Assembly (NCBI GenBank): GCA_949294785.1
Contig: CASFIQ010000140.1
Location: forward strand, 1 to 54,786
DNA from: an uncultured Collinsella sp.
Lineage (GTDB): Bacteria > Actinomycetota > Coriobacteriia > Coriobacteriales > Coriobacteriaceae
Length of the DNA: 54,786 nt
Reading direction: 5' to 3'
Below, one piece after another: positions 4,964 to 10,375 of the stretch. The notes beneath the pieces were generated by a model, which worked only from the letters and a program-made list of their open reading frames with translations, was not told the DNA's origin and ran no database searches. Each line of letters opens with the position of its first letter. Position 1 is the stretch's first letter. Made by a program: the position numbers and the translations under genes.

Positions 4964-4993
4964 GTTCAAATTGTGGAGCCAAAAAGCTAAAAT
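4964..4993 (+). promoter_or_regulatory. possible promoter of the rnf operon
   Basis: TTCAAA (4964-4969) and TAAAAT (4988-4993) are separated by 18 bp in an AT-rich patch of an otherwise GC-rich gap, 85 bp upstream of rnfC. The match to sigma-70 consensus is moderate. Confidence 0.3.
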
Positions 4994-5077: not shown

Positions 5078-6415
5078 ATGTTCTCTCTGCACAAGACGCT
5101 GGGCGGCGTTCATCCGCCCCAGTGCAAGGACACGCGTGACTGCCCCGTCACGTCGATCGACCCGCCGAAGCAGGTGCGCATTCCGCTGAACATGCACATC
5201 GGCGCTCCGGGGAAGCCGTGCGTGAACGTGGGCGACCACGTCTACATCGGCACGCTGATCGGCGATGGCGAGGGGCTCTGCGCGCCCACGCACGCCACCG
5301 TTTCGGGTACCGTGACCTCGGTTGCGACCGAGACGCTGCCGACCGGCCAGACGGCCCCGGTGATCGAGATCGCCTCGGACGGCAAGATGGAGAACGATCC
5401 GGCCATCGTGAAGCCGACGTACTCCGACAAGGACGAGTTCATCGAGTGCGTGCGCAAAAGCGGCGTGGTGGGTCTCGGCGGCGCATCGTTCCCGTCGTGG
5501 TTCAAGATGAAGTGCCCGCCGGGCAAGAAGTTCGAGTTCCTCGTCGTCAACGCCATGGAGTGCGAGCCCTTCATCACGAGCGACTACCGCCAGATGATCG
5601 AGCACTCCGAGCGCGTGGTCGACGGCGTGGCGCGCATCGCCCGCGCCCTCGGCATCCCCGCCGCCGTGATCGGCGTGGAGGACAACAAGCCCGAGGCCGT
5701 GGACAAGCTCCGCGAGGCCATCGCGGAGAAGGGCGTGGGCGACCTCGTCGAGGTCCTCATGGTCCCCACGCGCTACCCCATGGGCGGCGAGAAGGTGCTC
5801 ATCCAGACCTGCACGGGCCGCGCCGTGCCCGCCGGCGGGCTTCCCGTCGACGCCGGCTGCCTGGTGCTGAACGTCACCACGGTCTCGCGTATCGAGGAGT
5901 ACTTCCGCTACGGCGTGCCGCTGGTGCGCAAGACCGTCACCATCGCCGGCGACTGCGTCGCGAACCCCGGCAACTACCGTATCCCGATCGGTATGAGCGT
6001 GAAGGATGTCATCGAGACCACGGGCGGCCTCGTGAAGGAGCCGCGCAAGATCATCATGGGCGGCCCCATGATGGGACGTACCATCACCGATATCGACTGC
6101 CCGATCCTGAAGGCCAACAACGCGATCCTGTGCCTCGAGTCCAAGGCGATCCTGCCGGACGAGACGCCCTGCATCCGCTGCGGCCGCTGCGTGCGCGTGT
6201 GCCCGCTGGGCCTCATGCCGTTCCAGCTCGACGCGGCGAGCCGCGCCCACGATGTGGTGAAGCTCGACGAGTTCGCGGTCATGAACTGCATGGAGTGCGG
6301 CAGCTGCGCCTACACCTGCCCGGCGCACCGCCGCATCACCGCGTCGATCCGCGAGGGCAAGGGCTTCTACCGCTCCGAATCCGCCCGGCTCACCCAACCT
6401 GCGAAGGAGGCGTAG
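5078..6415 (+). CDS. rnfC: Rnf complex subunit RnfC
   Basis: 445 residues from ATG 5078 with a GGGGAG ribosome site; the longer in-frame ORF from 5018 has no good start. RnfC is the peripheral NADH/FMN- and iron-sulfur-binding subunit of the ferredoxin:NAD+ oxidoreductase that couples electron transfer to Na+ or H+ pumping. Visible are the N-terminal barrel-sandwich segment (HPPQCKDT), the Gly-rich 'GLGGASFPSWFKM' and 'NAMECEPF' motifs of the Complex1_51K-like domain, and two 4Fe-4S motifs near the C-terminus (CIRCGRCVRVCP at about 365 and CMECGSCAYTCP at about 404). It is the first gene of the rnfCDGEA operon. Confidence 0.95.
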   Translation: MFSLHKTLGGVHPPQCKDTRDCPVTSIDPPKQVRIPLNMHIGAPGKPCVNVGDHVYIGTLIGDGEGLCAPTHATVSGTVTSVATETLPTGQTAPVIEIASDGKMENDPAIVKPTYSDKDEFIECVRKSGVVGLGGASFPSWFKMKCPPGKKFEFLVVNAMECEPFITSDYRQMIEHSERVVDGVARIARALGIPAAVIGVEDNKPEAVDKLREAIAEKGVGDLVEVLMVPTRYPMGGEKVLIQTCTGRAVPAGGLPVDAGCLVLNVTTVSRIEEYFRYGVPLVRKTVTIAGDCVANPGNYRIPIGMSVKDVIETTGGLVKEPRKIIMGGPMMGRTITDIDCPILKANNAILCLESKAILPDETPCIRCGRCVRVCPLGLMPFQLDAASRAHDVVKLDEFAVMNCMECGSCAYTCPAHRRITASIREGKGFYRSESARLTQPAKEA

Positions 6416-6418
6416 GAC

Positions 6419-7351
6419 ATGAACCTCATCAACGAGGCATCGCCTCACTTCCACGGTGACTCCCAGACCACCAAGATCATGGGCGCCGTCTGCCTGGCGC
6501 TCCTCCCGACGCTCATCGCCGCCATCGTGCTGTACGGCCTCGGCTCGGCGGTCGTCACGCTCGTGTGCGTCGCTACGGCGCTCGTCTGCGAGCATCTGTG
6601 CTGCATCATCATGAAGCGCGAGTCCACCGCGGGCGACTTCTCCTGCGTGGTCACGGGCATGCTGCTCGCCTTCACCCTGCCGGCGACCTGCCCGTGGTGG
6701 GTGGCCGCTTTGGGCACGGCATTCGCGATCGTGGTGGTGAAGATGCTCTTCGGCGGCATCGGCACGAACGTGTTCAACCCGGCGGTCGCCGGCCGCGTCT
6801 TCATCATGGTGTGCCTGCCCAGCGCCCTCTCCAGCTACCCCGACGTGCAGGGCAAGGCGCTCGACGCCATCACCGGCGCCACGCCGCTCGCCATGAACGC
6901 CGCGGGCGCCGAGCCCTACAGCTACCTGGATATGCTGTTGGGCAACCATGCGGGCGCGCTCGGCGAGACCTGCATCCTGACGCTGCTTTTGGGCTACATC
7001 TTCCTGCTCGCGATCAAGGTCGTCGACGGCTGGGCCACGGTGCCCTTCATCGCCACGGTGGCCATCGTGACCGGTTGCGCCGGCGAGGACATCATCTACC
7101 AGCTGCTCTCGGGCGGTCTGGCACTCGGTGCGTTCTTCATGGCGACGGACTACACCACGACGCCCATGACGCCCAGGGGCAAGATCATCTTCGGTATCGG
7201 GTGCGGCCTCATCACCGCGCTCGTGCGCCTGTTCGCCTCCGCCCCCGAGGGCGTGGCGTTCTCCATCCTCTTCATGAACATGTTCGTTCCGCTGATCGAC
7301 CGCTATACGCGGACGCAGCCGGTGGGAGGTGTCAAGAATGCCCTCATCTAA
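6419..7351 (+). CDS. rnfD: Rnf complex subunit RnfD
   Basis: 310 residues starting three bases after the rnfC stop. It is an integral membrane protein with many hydrophobic helices and the conserved S/T-G-A-T flavinylation motif (DAITGATPL, about residue 158), where FMN is attached covalently through the threonine. It forms the membrane core with RnfA, E and G. Confidence 0.93.
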   Translation: MNLINEASPHFHGDSQTTKIMGAVCLALLPTLIAAIVLYGLGSAVVTLVCVATALVCEHLCCIIMKRESTAGDFSCVVTGMLLAFTLPATCPWWVAALGTAFAIVVVKMLFGGIGTNVFNPAVAGRVFIMVCLPSALSSYPDVQGKALDAITGATPLAMNAAGAEPYSYLDMLLGNHAGALGETCILTLLLGYIFLLAIKVVDGWATVPFIATVAIVTGCAGEDIIYQLLSGGLALGAFFMATDYTTTPMTPRGKIIFGIGCGLITALVRLFASAPEGVAFSILFMNMFVPLIDRYTRTQPVGGVKNALI

Positions 7352-7946
7352 CGAGAACCAGAAGCTCTCCTGGATCGCCCGCCATCGCAACGGCTCGCTC
7401 TATACCTTCGTGGTCGTGCTGGTCGCGGCGGCGGTGTGCGGCGGCGTGATGTCGACCGCGTACTTCGCGGGCCAGTGGGGCTCCACCGCCTTCGCCGACG
7501 CCGACGCGCGTCTCGACGAGGCCCAGGGCGGCGCCCAGCGCGCGCTGCTCTTCCCGGAGGCGTCCTCGTTTACCGAGGTCGCGGCCCCCTCGATTGAGGG
7601 CCTGAACTCCGTCTACCAGGCCGATACGGGTGGTTACGTCTTCGACGTGACCTCCACGGGCTATGCCGGCGACGTCGAGCTCATGATCGGCATCTCGGGC
7701 GGTGCGGTCACCGGCATCCAGGTCGTCGCCGAGAACGAGACCGATGGTATCGGTTCCAACGCGCTCACCGACGATTACTTCGCCACCTTCACGGACCTCT
7801 CCGCCACCGGCACCCTCACGGTCGAGGAGGCCGGCTCGGGCGAGACCCATGTCGACGGCGTCTCCGGTGCGACCTTCACCTCCAAGGCGGTTGTCGCCAA
7901 CCTGAACATCGCCTTCGAGGCCTATGCGCAGCTGGGAGGTAACTAA
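7338..7946 (+). CDS. rnfG: Rnf complex subunit RnfG
   Basis: 202 residues. ATG 7338 is chosen because GGGAGGT lies 7 bases upstream; the gene overlaps rnfD by 14 bp. One N-terminal membrane anchor (about 20-42) is followed by an extracytoplasmic FMN-binding domain with the covalent FMN motif SGATFTS near residue 180. Length is typical of RnfG. Confidence 0.93.
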   Translation: MPSSNENQKLSWIARHRNGSLYTFVVVLVAAAVCGGVMSTAYFAGQWGSTAFADADARLDEAQGGAQRALLFPEASSFTEVAAPSIEGLNSVYQADTGGYVFDVTSTGYAGDVELMIGISGGAVTGIQVVAENETDGIGSNALTDDYFATFTDLSATGTLTVEEAGSGETHVDGVSGATFTSKAVVANLNIAFEAYAQLGGN

Positions 7947-7947
7947 C

Positions 7948-8616
7948 ATGGCACTCAACGAGAACGTGGTGCGCGCGCAGGACGAGCGCATCTCCAAACT
8001 CGTCCGCACGCCTGCCTTCCTGGCGGTCGCGGGTTCTCTTACGGGCCTCGCCGCGGCGACGTCGGTCGAGAACGGCATCGGCATCGGCCTGGTGAGCGCC
8101 GTCTCCATCATCGCGATGGCGCTGATCGCCCGTCCGCTGCGCTCCATTACGGGCGTCTTCGCCCGTATCCCGGTGCTCCTTATCGTGAGCGCCACCATCG
8201 TGACGCTCGTCTCGTTCGTCGCGCGCGTCATCGACCCGGTTGTGACGCAGAATCTGGGCATCTACCTGCCGCTCGCGAGCCTGAACGGTATCGTCGCCTG
8301 CTTCATCTTCGATGACGGCTTCACCGGCGGTCCGCTTGACGGCTCGCCCGTCGCCACCGCCGTCTTCAGCGCGGTGTGCGCCTTCGCGTCGCTCGCGTTC
8401 GTGGGCTTCATCAACGGGATGCTCTCCACCGGTGCGGTCTTCGGCCTCACCATGAACGAGCTCGCGGCCTCGCCCTTCGCGATCTTCGGCACGCCCGCGG
8501 GTTCGCTTCTGGTCCTCGCGCTCGTCGCGACGTTCATCAACTCGGTGGTCGACGCCGCGCGCAAGAGCCGCGAGCTCGCCGAGGCTCCCGCCGACACGGA
8601 AGGGAGTGAGCGCTAA
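7948..8616 (+). CDS. rnfE: Rnf complex subunit RnfE
   Basis: 222 residues, ATG 7948 with GGGAGGT upstream. A polytopic membrane protein of the RnfA/RnfE (NqrD/E) family with repeated 'FxxG' helices, a 'GIYLPLASLNGIVACFIF' helix in the usual place and a hydrophilic C-terminal tail. The stop overlaps the start of rnfA (TAATG). Confidence 0.92.
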   Translation: MALNENVVRAQDERISKLVRTPAFLAVAGSLTGLAAATSVENGIGIGLVSAVSIIAMALIARPLRSITGVFARIPVLLIVSATIVTLVSFVARVIDPVVTQNLGIYLPLASLNGIVACFIFDDGFTGGPLDGSPVATAVFSAVCAFASLAFVGFINGMLSTGAVFGLTMNELAASPFAIFGTPAGSLLVLALVATFINSVVDAARKSRELAEAPADTEGSER

Positions 8617-9212
8617 TGGAGTTTCTGAACGCGCTCTTCACCGCCGCGCTCGATAACAACATCGTGTTCGGTCAGCTTGTCGGCATGGTCGCGGTTATGC
8701 TCGTCGCCGAGCGCCCGCAGGATTCGCTGCGCTTCGGCGGCATGCTCGCCCTTGCCGCCGCCGCGTCCGGTGCCATCGGCTGGCCCGTGTACGCCGGTAT
8801 CCTCGCCCCGTGGGGCGTGACCTACCTGGCGCCGATGGTCTACCTGCTTATCAGCTCGGCCGTCATCTTCATGGTCGGCACCGTCATCGCGGCGCCCAAG
8901 GCGCGCGCCGCGCGCCAGGGGATCTACCGCGTCTGCGCGCTGCTCGCCATCAACGCCTGCGTGCTCGCCGTGCCGCTCGCGATGGCCGCCGCGCCCGATG
9001 TCGCCACCTACGACGTGGCGCTCGGCACGGCGATCGGCTCCGGCCTCGGTGTCTTCATCGCCGTGGTCGCCTTCGCCTACATCCACGACCGCATCGACGA
9101 GACGCTCGTCCCGGGCGTCCTGCGCGGCATGCCCATCTCGCTCATCACGGCCGCCCTTATGGCGCTCGCCTTCACGGGTGTCGCGGGCATCGCCGGCGGC
9201 ATGTTCGTCTAA
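8616..9212 (+). CDS. rnfA: Rnf complex subunit RnfA
   Basis: 198 residues, the usual RnfA length, with about six transmembrane helices: an N-terminal 'AALDNNIVFGQLVG' helix and the 'YRVCALLAINACVLAVPLAM' helix that carries one of the conserved membrane cysteines. The start overlaps the rnfE stop by one base, indicating translational coupling. RnfA and RnfE are inverted-topology paralogues at the heart of the pump. Confidence 0.93.
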   Translation: MEFLNALFTAALDNNIVFGQLVGMVAVMLVAERPQDSLRFGGMLALAAAASGAIGWPVYAGILAPWGVTYLAPMVYLLISSAVIFMVGTVIAAPKARAARQGIYRVCALLAINACVLAVPLAMAAAPDVATYDVALGTAIGSGLGVFIAVVAFAYIHDRIDETLVPGVLRGMPISLITAALMALAFTGVAGIAGGMFV

Positions 9213-9224
9213 GGGGGTACTCGC

Positions 9225-9380
9225 ATGGGAATGTATCTGATCGCCCCGCCGCTGCTCGTCATCCTGCTCGCCGTCGTGCCGGCCGCCGTCATCGGCATCG
9301 CGTCGCGTCTGGCACGTCGTGCCGACTGGCTTGAGGAGCAGGCCGCCGCATCCAACGACGAAGGTGCGCCGCAAGAGTAG
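9225..9380 (+). CDS. 51-residue single-pass membrane protein at the rnfB position
   Basis: A small ORF 12 bases after rnfA, with GGGGG upstream of ATG 9225. One hydrophobic helix (about residues 4-27, LIAPPLLVILLAVVPAAVIGI) is followed by a basic patch and a short acidic tail. In most rnfCDGEAB operons the next gene is rnfB, which also begins with a membrane anchor but continues with ferredoxin-like 4Fe-4S domains. None of those cysteines are present here, and the operon terminator follows at 9414. It could be a remnant of RnfB's anchor or a lineage-specific accessory subunit. Confidence 0.6.
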   Translation: MGMYLIAPPLLVILLAVVPAAVIGIASRLARRADWLEEQAAASNDEGAPQE

Positions 9381-9413
9381 GCTTCTTTACAGCTTCGGCG
9401 TGAGCCTATACCT

Positions 9414-9449
9414 AAGGAGGGCGGAAGCGATTCCGTCCTCCTTTCTTGT
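9414..9449 (+). terminator. rho-independent terminator of the rnf operon
   Basis: A 13-bp stem (9414-9426 with 9431-9443, one G-U pair), a GCGA loop and a T-rich tail. It ends the rnf operon 34 bp after the small membrane protein. Confidence 0.85.
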
Positions 9450-9546: not shown

Positions 9547-9813
9547 TTGTCACTTGTGGCGCCCTATGGCGATGATCTGGAGCGCATCGAGGCGTTCAGC
9601 CCGCTGTCCCCGGTAGCTACGACGAACTTCATCGGTTCACGGCTGCTCGTGGAGAACGTTCGCGCGATCGCGCCGGTGCCGGGCATACACCCGCTTACGG
9701 AGGATAGCCGCAGGATTCTGCTGGATGGGCTGAACGATACCGCTCCCGTGCAGGTGCTCGATAAGATTTGGGAGATCATATGGGAGCGGTGGCGGTGGTA
9801 TGAGGCGCTTTGA
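9547..9813 (+). CDS. small hypothetical protein, probably frameshifted at its N-terminus
   Basis: An 88-residue ORF with only a TTG start and no ribosome site, overlapping the downstream HTH gene by 14 bp. It is recognisable as coding by its sequence character (DDLERIEAF, then SRLLVENVRAIAPVPG, ending in a Trp-rich WEIIWERWRWYEAL). A better start, ATG 9504, lies in another frame and reads MGQRDITRKLQD before a TAA at 9543. Skipping one base near 9536 joins it to this frame, giving ...RKLQ-INGLSLVAPYGDD. The locus (short upstream protein, HTH partner, palindromic promoter) looks like a toxin-antitoxin pair, but I do not recognise the family. Confidence 0.45.
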   Translation: MSLVAPYGDDLERIEAFSPLSPVATTNFIGSRLLVENVRAIAPVPGIHPLTEDSRRILLDGLNDTAPVQVLDKIWEIIWERWRWYEAL

Positions 9814-10375
9814 GCTTATCGATGGAGAACGGGCAGGCGCGATTCCATGCGGGTTGCTGCGTTACGATCCGTCCAAGCAGGAGTTCGCATTCGAGGCGGC
9901 GCCAGATGCGGGGCCTTTGGATGTGCCGATGATGTTCGCACCGTTCATCGAAGCGGGCGAGCGCGAGGTGCCCGCGCGTTGGGTGCGTGCATGGGTGGAT
10001 GAACGCATCGCGCCGCCCTCGCGTCAGAACATCGGCGAGATTCTGCGCGCGCACGACCTCTCCGAATACGATCCATGCGAGCTTCTGACGTCTGGTGAGG
10101 GGCGCAGTACGCAGGACGGTTTCTATCTGCGGGAGATCGGGGACGGTTATCGGGGGGCCGTAGAACTTGGGAGGGCGCTTTTGCGGGCACGTGAGACGTG
10201 CGGCATGACGCAAGAAGAGCTGGCCCGTCGCGCGGGTATCTCACAAGAGGTCATCAGTAAGCTGGAGCGCGGCGGCAGCAATCCGACGATGCGCACGCTC
10301 GAGCGCCTTGCCCGCGCGATGGACATGTGCCTCATCATCAAGTTCGACCGCCCGGAAGCCGGTCCCACAGACTGA
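9800..10375 (+). CDS. HipA-N-like/Xre-type HTH protein (antitoxin-like)
   Basis: 191 residues. The N-terminal ~110 residues carry a WVRAWVDERIAPPSRQN...ILRAHDLSEYDPCELL segment, similar to the domain seen in HipA-like and related toxin-antitoxin proteins. A DGFYLREIG stretch follows, then a clear Xre/HTH_3 domain (about 122-180: TQEELARRAGISQEVISKLERGGSNPTMRTLERLARAM). It is translated with a 14-bp overlap from the preceding small ORF and probably represses the palindromic promoter at 9451-9484. The HTH is certain; the system assignment is inference. Confidence 0.7.
   Translation: MRRFELIDGERAGAIPCGLLRYDPSKQEFAFEAAPDAGPLDVPMMFAPFIEAGEREVPARWVRAWVDERIAPPSRQNIGEILRAHDLSEYDPCELLTSGEGRSTQDGFYLREIGDGYRGAVELGRALLRARETCGMTQEELARRAGISQEVISKLERGGSNPTMRTLERLARAMDMCLIIKFDRPEAGPTD

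What the first reader, a model, noticed from the sequence alone, without database searches (positions are those of the whole stretch)
9213..9449. rnf operon without rnfB: a 51-residue membrane protein takes its place
The operon reads C-D-G-E-A and then a single-TM protein with no cysteines, followed by a terminator. RnfB normally carries the ferredoxin-type clusters that feed electrons into the complex. Either rnfB lies elsewhere, or this complex uses another electron entry point, with the small protein as a scaffold or RnfB anchor remnant.
Basis: partly seen in the sequence, partly recalled or inferred. Interest (0 to 1): 0.72.

Follow-up and report, generated by a model that had tools for sequence, protein, structure and literature searches.

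The report
Gut-bacterial Rnf pump missing electron-input half
Collinsella-type gut bacteria carry a version of the Rnf electron-transfer complex that has lost both its ferredoxin-reading subunit (only the membrane stub is left) and the buried iron-sulfur cluster that subunit fed, so it probably sends electrons from NADH out through the membrane instead of running the usual ferredoxin-to-NAD pump.

Summary
The operon is rnfC-D-G-E-A plus a 51-residue single-TM ORF, then a terminator; the genome has no RnfB. The arrangement is clade-wide: all 27 operons examined from this family (Coriobacteriaceae: Collinsella, Enorma, relatives) lack rnfB and carry a 43-70-residue single-TM ORF in its slot. All 73 other Coriobacteriia with an RnfD match encode an RnfB-type Fe-S domain. 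The small protein matches the N-terminal membrane anchor of RnfB better than any control and is under purifying selection, so it is a truncated RnfB. RnfC (two [4Fe-4S], NADH site), RnfD and RnfG (flavinylation threonines) are intact, and ApbE and EetB track the complex (each 23/23, versus 3/14 and 0/14 without it). Most likely this is a one-way NADH to RnfC to RnfD to RnfG to extracytosolic acceptor chain, with RnfA/E and the stub as scaffold. Direction and acceptor are inferred, not shown. New variant of a known kind.

The parts
4965..4993 (+). weak sigma-70-like promoter match upstream of rnfC
   Evidence: consensus scan, 9 of 12 matches; 2 found against 0.7 expected in the region; weak
5078..6415 (+). 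rnfC: NADH/FMN subunit with two [4Fe-4S] sites, intact
   Evidence: TIGR01945 450 bits over cut-off 246; all eight cluster Cys kept in 27/27 family operons
6419..7351 (+). rnfD: membrane subunit with the FMN-threonine motif, intact
   Evidence: TIGR01946 281 bits over cut-off 207; DAITGATPLA motif; model matches solved RnfD 7zc6_D, TM 0.89
7338..7946 (+). rnfG: single-TM protein with extracytosolic FMN domain, SGAT motif kept
   Evidence: PF04205 58 bits; SGAT in 27/27; only FMN_bind protein in the genome
7948..8616 (+). rnfE: divergent; both cluster cysteines replaced (Leu31 at 8038-8040, Gly114 at 8287-8289)
   Evidence: PF02508; alignment; model matches solved RnfE
8616..9212 (+). rnfA: divergent; both cluster cysteines replaced (Val25 at 8688-8690, Ala114 at 8955-8957)
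   Evidence: PF02508; alignment
9213..9217 (+). ribosome-binding-site-like GGGGG before the small ORF
   Evidence: sequence
9225..9380 (+). 51-aa single-TM protein: RnfB reduced to its N-terminal membrane anchor
   Evidence: rnfB slot in all 27 family operons; profile match to RnfB N-terminus above all controls; purifying selection; topology
9414..9443 (+). terminator-like hairpin ending the operon
   Evidence: 13-pair stem, 4-nt loop, T-rich tail

Best explanation
This is a half-Rnf. In the ancestor of the Collinsella/Enorma family a canonical RnfCDGEAB complex lost the Fe-S domains of RnfB and the [2Fe-2S] cluster at the RnfA/RnfE interface, that is, the whole limb that takes electrons from cytosolic ferredoxin to the outside face. 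The N-terminal TM helix of RnfB survives as the small ORF; it probably keeps its place in the four-helix bundle with RnfA, RnfE and RnfG, so RnfA, RnfE and the stub now act as a scaffold holding RnfG. The other limb is intact: electrons probably enter from NADH at RnfC (FMN, two [4Fe-4S]), cross via the RnfD flavins to covalent FMN on RnfG outside, and go to an unidentified extracytosolic acceptor. Shown by sequence: loss of the RnfB Fe-S domain and of the four cluster ligands, retention of the other cofactor sites, anchor homology, single origin, co-inheritance with ApbE and EetB. Inferred: scaffold role, direction of flow, extracytosolic acceptor, loss of ferredoxin chemistry.
For: RnfB Fe-S domain absent in 24/24 RnfD-positive family genomes and present in 73/73 RnfD-positive outsiders, absent in five named genomes. 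All four RnfA/RnfE ligands lost in 27/27, kept in essentially all outsiders. Invariant-position losses concentrated in RnfE (56%) and RnfA (47%) against RnfC 13% and RnfD 8%. RnfC, RnfD, RnfG cofactor motifs intact. Small ORF versus RnfB N-terminus: hhalign 26.8 against at most 20.4 in 184 control windows and 17.7 in 200 shuffles. ApbE 23/23 vs 3/14 and EetB-type PF07456 23/23 vs 0/14. Single origin. RnfB TM packs with RnfA, RnfE and RnfG helices in C. tetanomorphum (PMC9588780). RnfG FMN at -129 mV on the outer face in M. acetivorans (PMC4023990). One-way NAD(P)H to outside flow already proposed for Nqr/Rnf-like complexes (PMC8238504, PMC11334425).
Against: No acceptor is identified: RnfG is the only FMN_bind protein in these genomes, so the best-known class of flavinylated extracytosolic reductases is absent, and the operon neighbours are uninformative. 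ApbE and EetB also accompany canonical Rnf, so they show flavinylation, not direction. Retention of conserved RnfA/RnfE could mean an active role beyond scaffold. No biochemistry exists for this complex.
Confidence: 0.6

Rival explanations
1. The complex is a quinone reductase: electrons from NADH pass RnfC to RnfD and leave to a membrane quinone, with RnfG and RnfA/E accessory.
For: In the related NQR, electrons leave from the NqrB riboflavin to ubiquinone (PMC12174285), and RnfD is the NqrB homologue.
Against: RnfG keeps its flavinylation motif in 27/27 and the flavin-export and flavinylation genes are strictly co-inherited, which is unneeded if RnfG carries no electrons. Quinone synthesis in these genomes was not tested.
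Confidence: 0.15
2. The complex runs the other way: an extracytosolic donor reduces RnfG and electrons pass RnfD and RnfC to NAD+ inside.
For: This is the direction of the same limb in ferredoxin-driven Rnf (PMC12174285); all components are present.
Against: It needs an external donor near or below the NADH potential; none is known in these genomes, and RnfG measured elsewhere is at -129 mV, uphill to NAD+ without an ion gradient.
Confidence: 0.1
3. The ferredoxin route was rebuilt: an unlinked Fe-S protein docks on the stub, or a new cluster made by cysteines gained in RnfD or RnfC, restores ferredoxin:NAD+ chemistry.
For: RnfD gained family-invariant Cys25, 61, 76 and 91 and RnfC gained Cys124, 261, 293 and 341; Trp61 and Ala76 are near-invariant outside the family.
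Against: Gained cysteines are not enriched among gained residues (9 of 227, p = 0.15). No PF04060 protein and no NqrF. The old RnfA/RnfE cluster site is emptied, so RnfG could not be fed by the old route. Geometry could not be measured.
Confidence: 0.08
4. rnfB is present elsewhere in the genome, or the operon is a decaying remnant or an assembly error.
For: The window's genome is fragmented (223 contigs) and 85.6% complete.
Against: Same arrangement in 27 operons, isolates and a complete chromosome; all frames open; the small ORF is under purifying selection; flavinylation genes are co-retained.
Confidence: 0.02

Closest known systems
Canonical Rnf complex (RnfABCDGE, ferredoxin:NAD+ oxidoreductase)
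   Same: RnfC, RnfD, RnfG with their cofactor motifs; RnfA and RnfE by homology and fold; gene order C-D-G-E-A; direct descent.
   Different: No RnfB Fe-S domains, only its membrane anchor; no cysteine ligands for the RnfA/RnfE [2Fe-2S] cluster; so no ferredoxin input limb.
Nqr/Rnf-like complexes (Meheust 2021 PMC8238504; Huang 2024 PMC11334425)
   Same: Components for a single membrane crossing from NAD(P)H to an extracytosolic FMN protein; proposed one-way flow.
   Different: Those are two-subunit systems: an RnfG/NqrC homologue plus an NqrB/RnfD membrane domain fused to an NqrF-type NAD domain, without the RnfD flavinylation site. Here NADH is handled by a separate RnfC, the RnfD site is kept, and RnfA, RnfE and an RnfB stub persist.
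Na+-NQR
   Same: Also arose from Rnf by losing rnfB (PMC12174285).
   Different: NQR gained NqrF and kept the [2Fe-2S] cluster; here there is no NqrF and no cluster ligands.
Listeria flavin-based extracellular electron transfer (FmnB/ApbE, EetB, PplA, Ndh2)
   Same: Adjacent EetB-type PF07456 exporter and ApbE that load FMN outside the membrane (PMC9973259).
   Different: RnfG is the only FMN_bind protein, so there is no separate PplA-like carrier; the membrane crossing is by RnfC/RnfD.

Membership tests
Canonical Rnf complex | RnfC with NADH/FMN domain and two [4Fe-4S] sites | tested here: met
Canonical Rnf complex | RnfD with covalent-FMN threonine motif | tested here: met
   motif present in 27/27; fold; FMN itself not measured
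Canonical Rnf complex | RnfG with SGAT flavinylation motif | tested here: met
   27/27; ApbE and EetB present
Canonical Rnf complex | RnfA/RnfE with four cysteines for the intramembrane [2Fe-2S] cluster | tested here: not met
   0 of 4 ligands in 27/27 family operons
Canonical Rnf complex | RnfB with ferredoxin-type clusters | tested here: not met
Canonical Rnf complex | ferredoxin:NAD+ oxidoreductase activity coupled to ion transport | not testable with these tools
   needs biochemistry
RnfB (for the 51-aa ORF) | N-terminal TM anchor in the rnfB slot after rnfA | tested here: met
RnfB (for the 51-aa ORF) | PF04060 Fe-S domain and further [4Fe-4S] motifs | tested here: not met
   ORF ends after the anchor; no Cys in the window's ORF
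Nqr/Rnf-like complexes (Meheust 2021) | NqrB/RnfD membrane domain fused to an NqrF-type NAD domain (PF00175) | tested here: not met
   RnfD is 310 aa with PF03116 only
Nqr/Rnf-like complexes (Meheust 2021) | redox components for a single membrane crossing | tested here: met
   only the RnfC-RnfD-RnfG limb keeps cofactor sites
Na+-NQR | NqrF electron-input subunit | tested here: not met
   no TIGR01941 hit over cut-off in 60 genomes, no hit at all in the family
Listeria-type flavin EET | EetB-type exporter and ApbE | tested here: met
Listeria-type flavin EET | separate FMN_bind carrier such as PplA | tested here: not met
   RnfG is the only PF04205 protein
Listeria-type flavin EET | Ndh2 and demethylmenaquinone synthesis | not tested

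The most novel reading that the evidence does not exclude
Collinsella-type gut bacteria turned Rnf from a two-crossing ferredoxin:NAD+ pump into a one-crossing NADH-driven exporter of electrons, by cutting RnfB down to its membrane anchor and emptying the RnfA/RnfE cluster site. This would be a third outcome of rnfB loss, besides NQR and the two-subunit Nqr/Rnf-like systems, and an extracellular electron-transfer route in common gut commensals.
Probability: 0.45. Interest if true: 0.82.

Novelty: new variant of a known kind. Interest (0 to 1): 0.7.

Why it matters
Rnf is treated as a fixed six-subunit ferredoxin:NAD+ energy converter, and rnfC/rnfD in a genome is read as that function. Here a widespread gut lineage has the genes without the ferredoxin limb, so metabolic models that give these strains an Rnf would misjudge their energy budget. 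It is also a natural dissection experiment: RnfA/RnfE without their cluster and RnfB without its Fe-S domains, in a complex kept by selection, which bears on what those subunits do structurally and on which subunit moves ions. If electrons do leave the cell this way, it adds a flavin-based exit route in Collinsella.

Tried and rejected
rnfB elsewhere, misassembly or pseudogene: rejected. NqrF replacement: none. A second, canonical Rnf: only one RnfD per family genome. Acceptor gene next door: the conserved neighbours (a glnA-like gene, a response regulator, an HtrA-like protease, a deaminase, ligA) are not telling. Flavinylated reductase as acceptor: none, RnfG is the only FMN_bind protein. 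New Fe-S site from gained cysteines: not enriched, and no model coordinates were available to test geometry. Literature: no held paper describes an Rnf lacking RnfB, and the searches for Rnf or extracellular electron transfer in Collinsella gave nothing on point; most subscription journals are not held. The all-against-all neighbour clustering was mostly noise from shadow ORFs in this G+C-rich DNA.

Full report
Observation. The window holds rnfC (5078-6415), rnfD (6419-7351), rnfG (7338-7946), rnfE (7948-8616), rnfA (8616-9212), a 51-aa ORF (9225-9380) and a terminator-like hairpin (9414-9443). RnfC and RnfD pass the curated Rnf cut-offs, but RnfG (55 of 102 bits), RnfE (43 of 213) and RnfA (80 of 229) do not. 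The own genome has no RnfB over the cut-off and no RnfB Fe-S domain.

Not an accident of assembly. Among 60 genomes (own plus relatives) 25 have RnfD; 23 are in the window's family and none of those has RnfB over the cut-off, whereas G043 of another family has a canonical C-D-G-E-A-B operon. In 298 genomes of the class, the 24 family members with RnfD all lack PF04060, while 73 of 73 RnfD-positive genomes outside the family have it (two of the 73 RnfD matches are partial and below the cut-off). PF04060 also occurs in other proteins, so I checked a sample of loci: in the fetched outside operons not cut by a contig end, an rnfB follows. A scan of named genomes places the family as Coriobacteriaceae: Collinsella tanakaei, C. 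intestinalis, C. stercoris, C. ihumii, Enorma phocaeensis and relatives. Five of these, including the complete C. stercoris chromosome, lack PF04060.

The small ORF. All 27 family operons examined have a 43-70-residue single-TM ORF after rnfA, usually 6-15 nt downstream, where rnfB starts in outside relatives (mostly 8-24 nt). Its profile aligns from the N-terminus over 32 columns with the RnfB N-terminus at hhalign score 26.8; the best of 184 control windows from other Rnf membrane subunits scored 20.4 and the best of 200 column shuffles 17.7. Single sequences show it by eye: MDPLIQTVVPPIIAVMAVAVPAVVLAVVSGVARRAEYEER (L181) beside MDPIILTVALVAAIGLVGAIILVVASRALAVEVDERL (RnfB of L161). It has no Lys or Arg before the TM and, in most sequences, several just after it, as expected for an outside N-terminus and RnfB topology. 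dN/dS is about 0-0.24 in ten of eleven pairs and 0.36 in the most divergent. The profile match is between short hydrophobic segments and would be modest alone; the slot, start and conservation carry it.

In the C. tetanomorphum structure the intramembrane metal site is held by RnfA Cys25 and Cys113 and RnfE Cys26 and Cys109 (PMC9588780); the review PMC12174285 assigns there a [2Fe-2S] cluster that takes electrons from RnfB and passes them to RnfG. At these positions the family has Val/Ala, Ala, Leu and Gly/Ala: no Cys in any of 27 operons, while outside the family they are Cys in every sequence with a letter there. RnfE and RnfA also lost 56% and 47% of the positions invariant outside, against 13% and 8% for RnfC and RnfD. 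The RnfE model still matches solved RnfE. The loss is specific to the limb that carried ferredoxin electrons outward.

What remains. RnfC keeps its NADH/FMN domain and all eight [4Fe-4S] cysteines; RnfD and RnfG keep the flavinylation motifs. The machinery that loads FMN outside the membrane is co-inherited: ApbE in 23 of 23 RnfD-positive family genomes against 3 of 14 RnfD-negative ones (Fisher p = 4e-7), and the EetB-type flavin exporter PF07456 in 23 of 23 against 0 of 14. In the loci inspected the two are neighbours. EetB is required for flavin export and flavinylation in Listeria (PMC9973259). RnfG is the only FMN_bind protein found in each family genome searched, so RnfG and RnfD are the evident ApbE substrates. 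A flavinylated complex is therefore maintained by selection. These genomes are related, so the counts are not independent events. EetB and ApbE also accompany ordinary Rnf, so they speak for flavinylation, not for the direction of flow.

Mechanism. The simplest reading is one-way flow: NADH to RnfC to RnfD to RnfG to something outside. It is downhill if RnfG here resembles the M. acetivorans protein (-129 mV, outer face; PMC4023990). The stub helix and the cluster-free RnfA/E would be kept because the RnfB TM packs in a four-helix bundle with TMs of RnfA, RnfE and RnfG (PMC9588780). Shown by sequence: losses, retentions, anchor homology, single origin (RnfC+D tree, family monophyletic with support 0.949, canonical L114 as sister). 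Inferred: scaffold role, direction, acceptor. The acceptor is the weak point; I found no candidate.

Known systems. Meheust 2021 and Huang 2024 proposed single-limb, one-way Nqr/Rnf-like complexes, but those are two-subunit systems with an NqrB-NqrF type fusion and no RnfD flavinylation site (PMC8238504, PMC11334425). That survey scored RNF only where RnfB was present, so it would not have counted this complex as RNF. NQR came from Rnf by losing rnfB and gaining NqrF (PMC12174285); here there is no NqrF. I file this as a new variant: a descendant of Rnf that fails two defining features of Rnf and works, if the inference holds, like the one-way Nqr/Rnf-like complexes. That it is undescribed rests on the open-access library only.

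Noticed in passing
window 9547-10375: A small ORF and an Xre/HTH_3-type protein lie directly after the rnf terminator; they were not seen as a conserved neighbour in the relatives' loci. Possibly a recent insertion or a toxin-antitoxin-like pair.
   Followed up: no
window rnfD 6419-7351 and rnfC 5078-6415: Family-invariant cysteines gained in RnfD (25, 61, 76, 91) and RnfC (124, 261, 293, 341); RnfD Trp61 and Ala76 are near-invariant outside the family. Not enriched overall (p = 0.15), but a new metal or disulfide site is not excluded.
   Followed up: partly
L223-L229 (apbE loci): Most family genomes with this complex have two apbE genes, one beside an EetB-type gene and one elsewhere without it.
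   Followed up: partly
genomes G038 and G046 (same order, another family): 43 and 23 FMN_bind matches per genome, far more than in the window's family (one each): a large repertoire of flavinylated proteins.
   Followed up: no
window's family as a whole: 14 of 37 family genomes sampled lack the complex, together with EetB (14/14) and mostly ApbE (11/14): the module seems to be lost or kept as a unit.
   Followed up: partly
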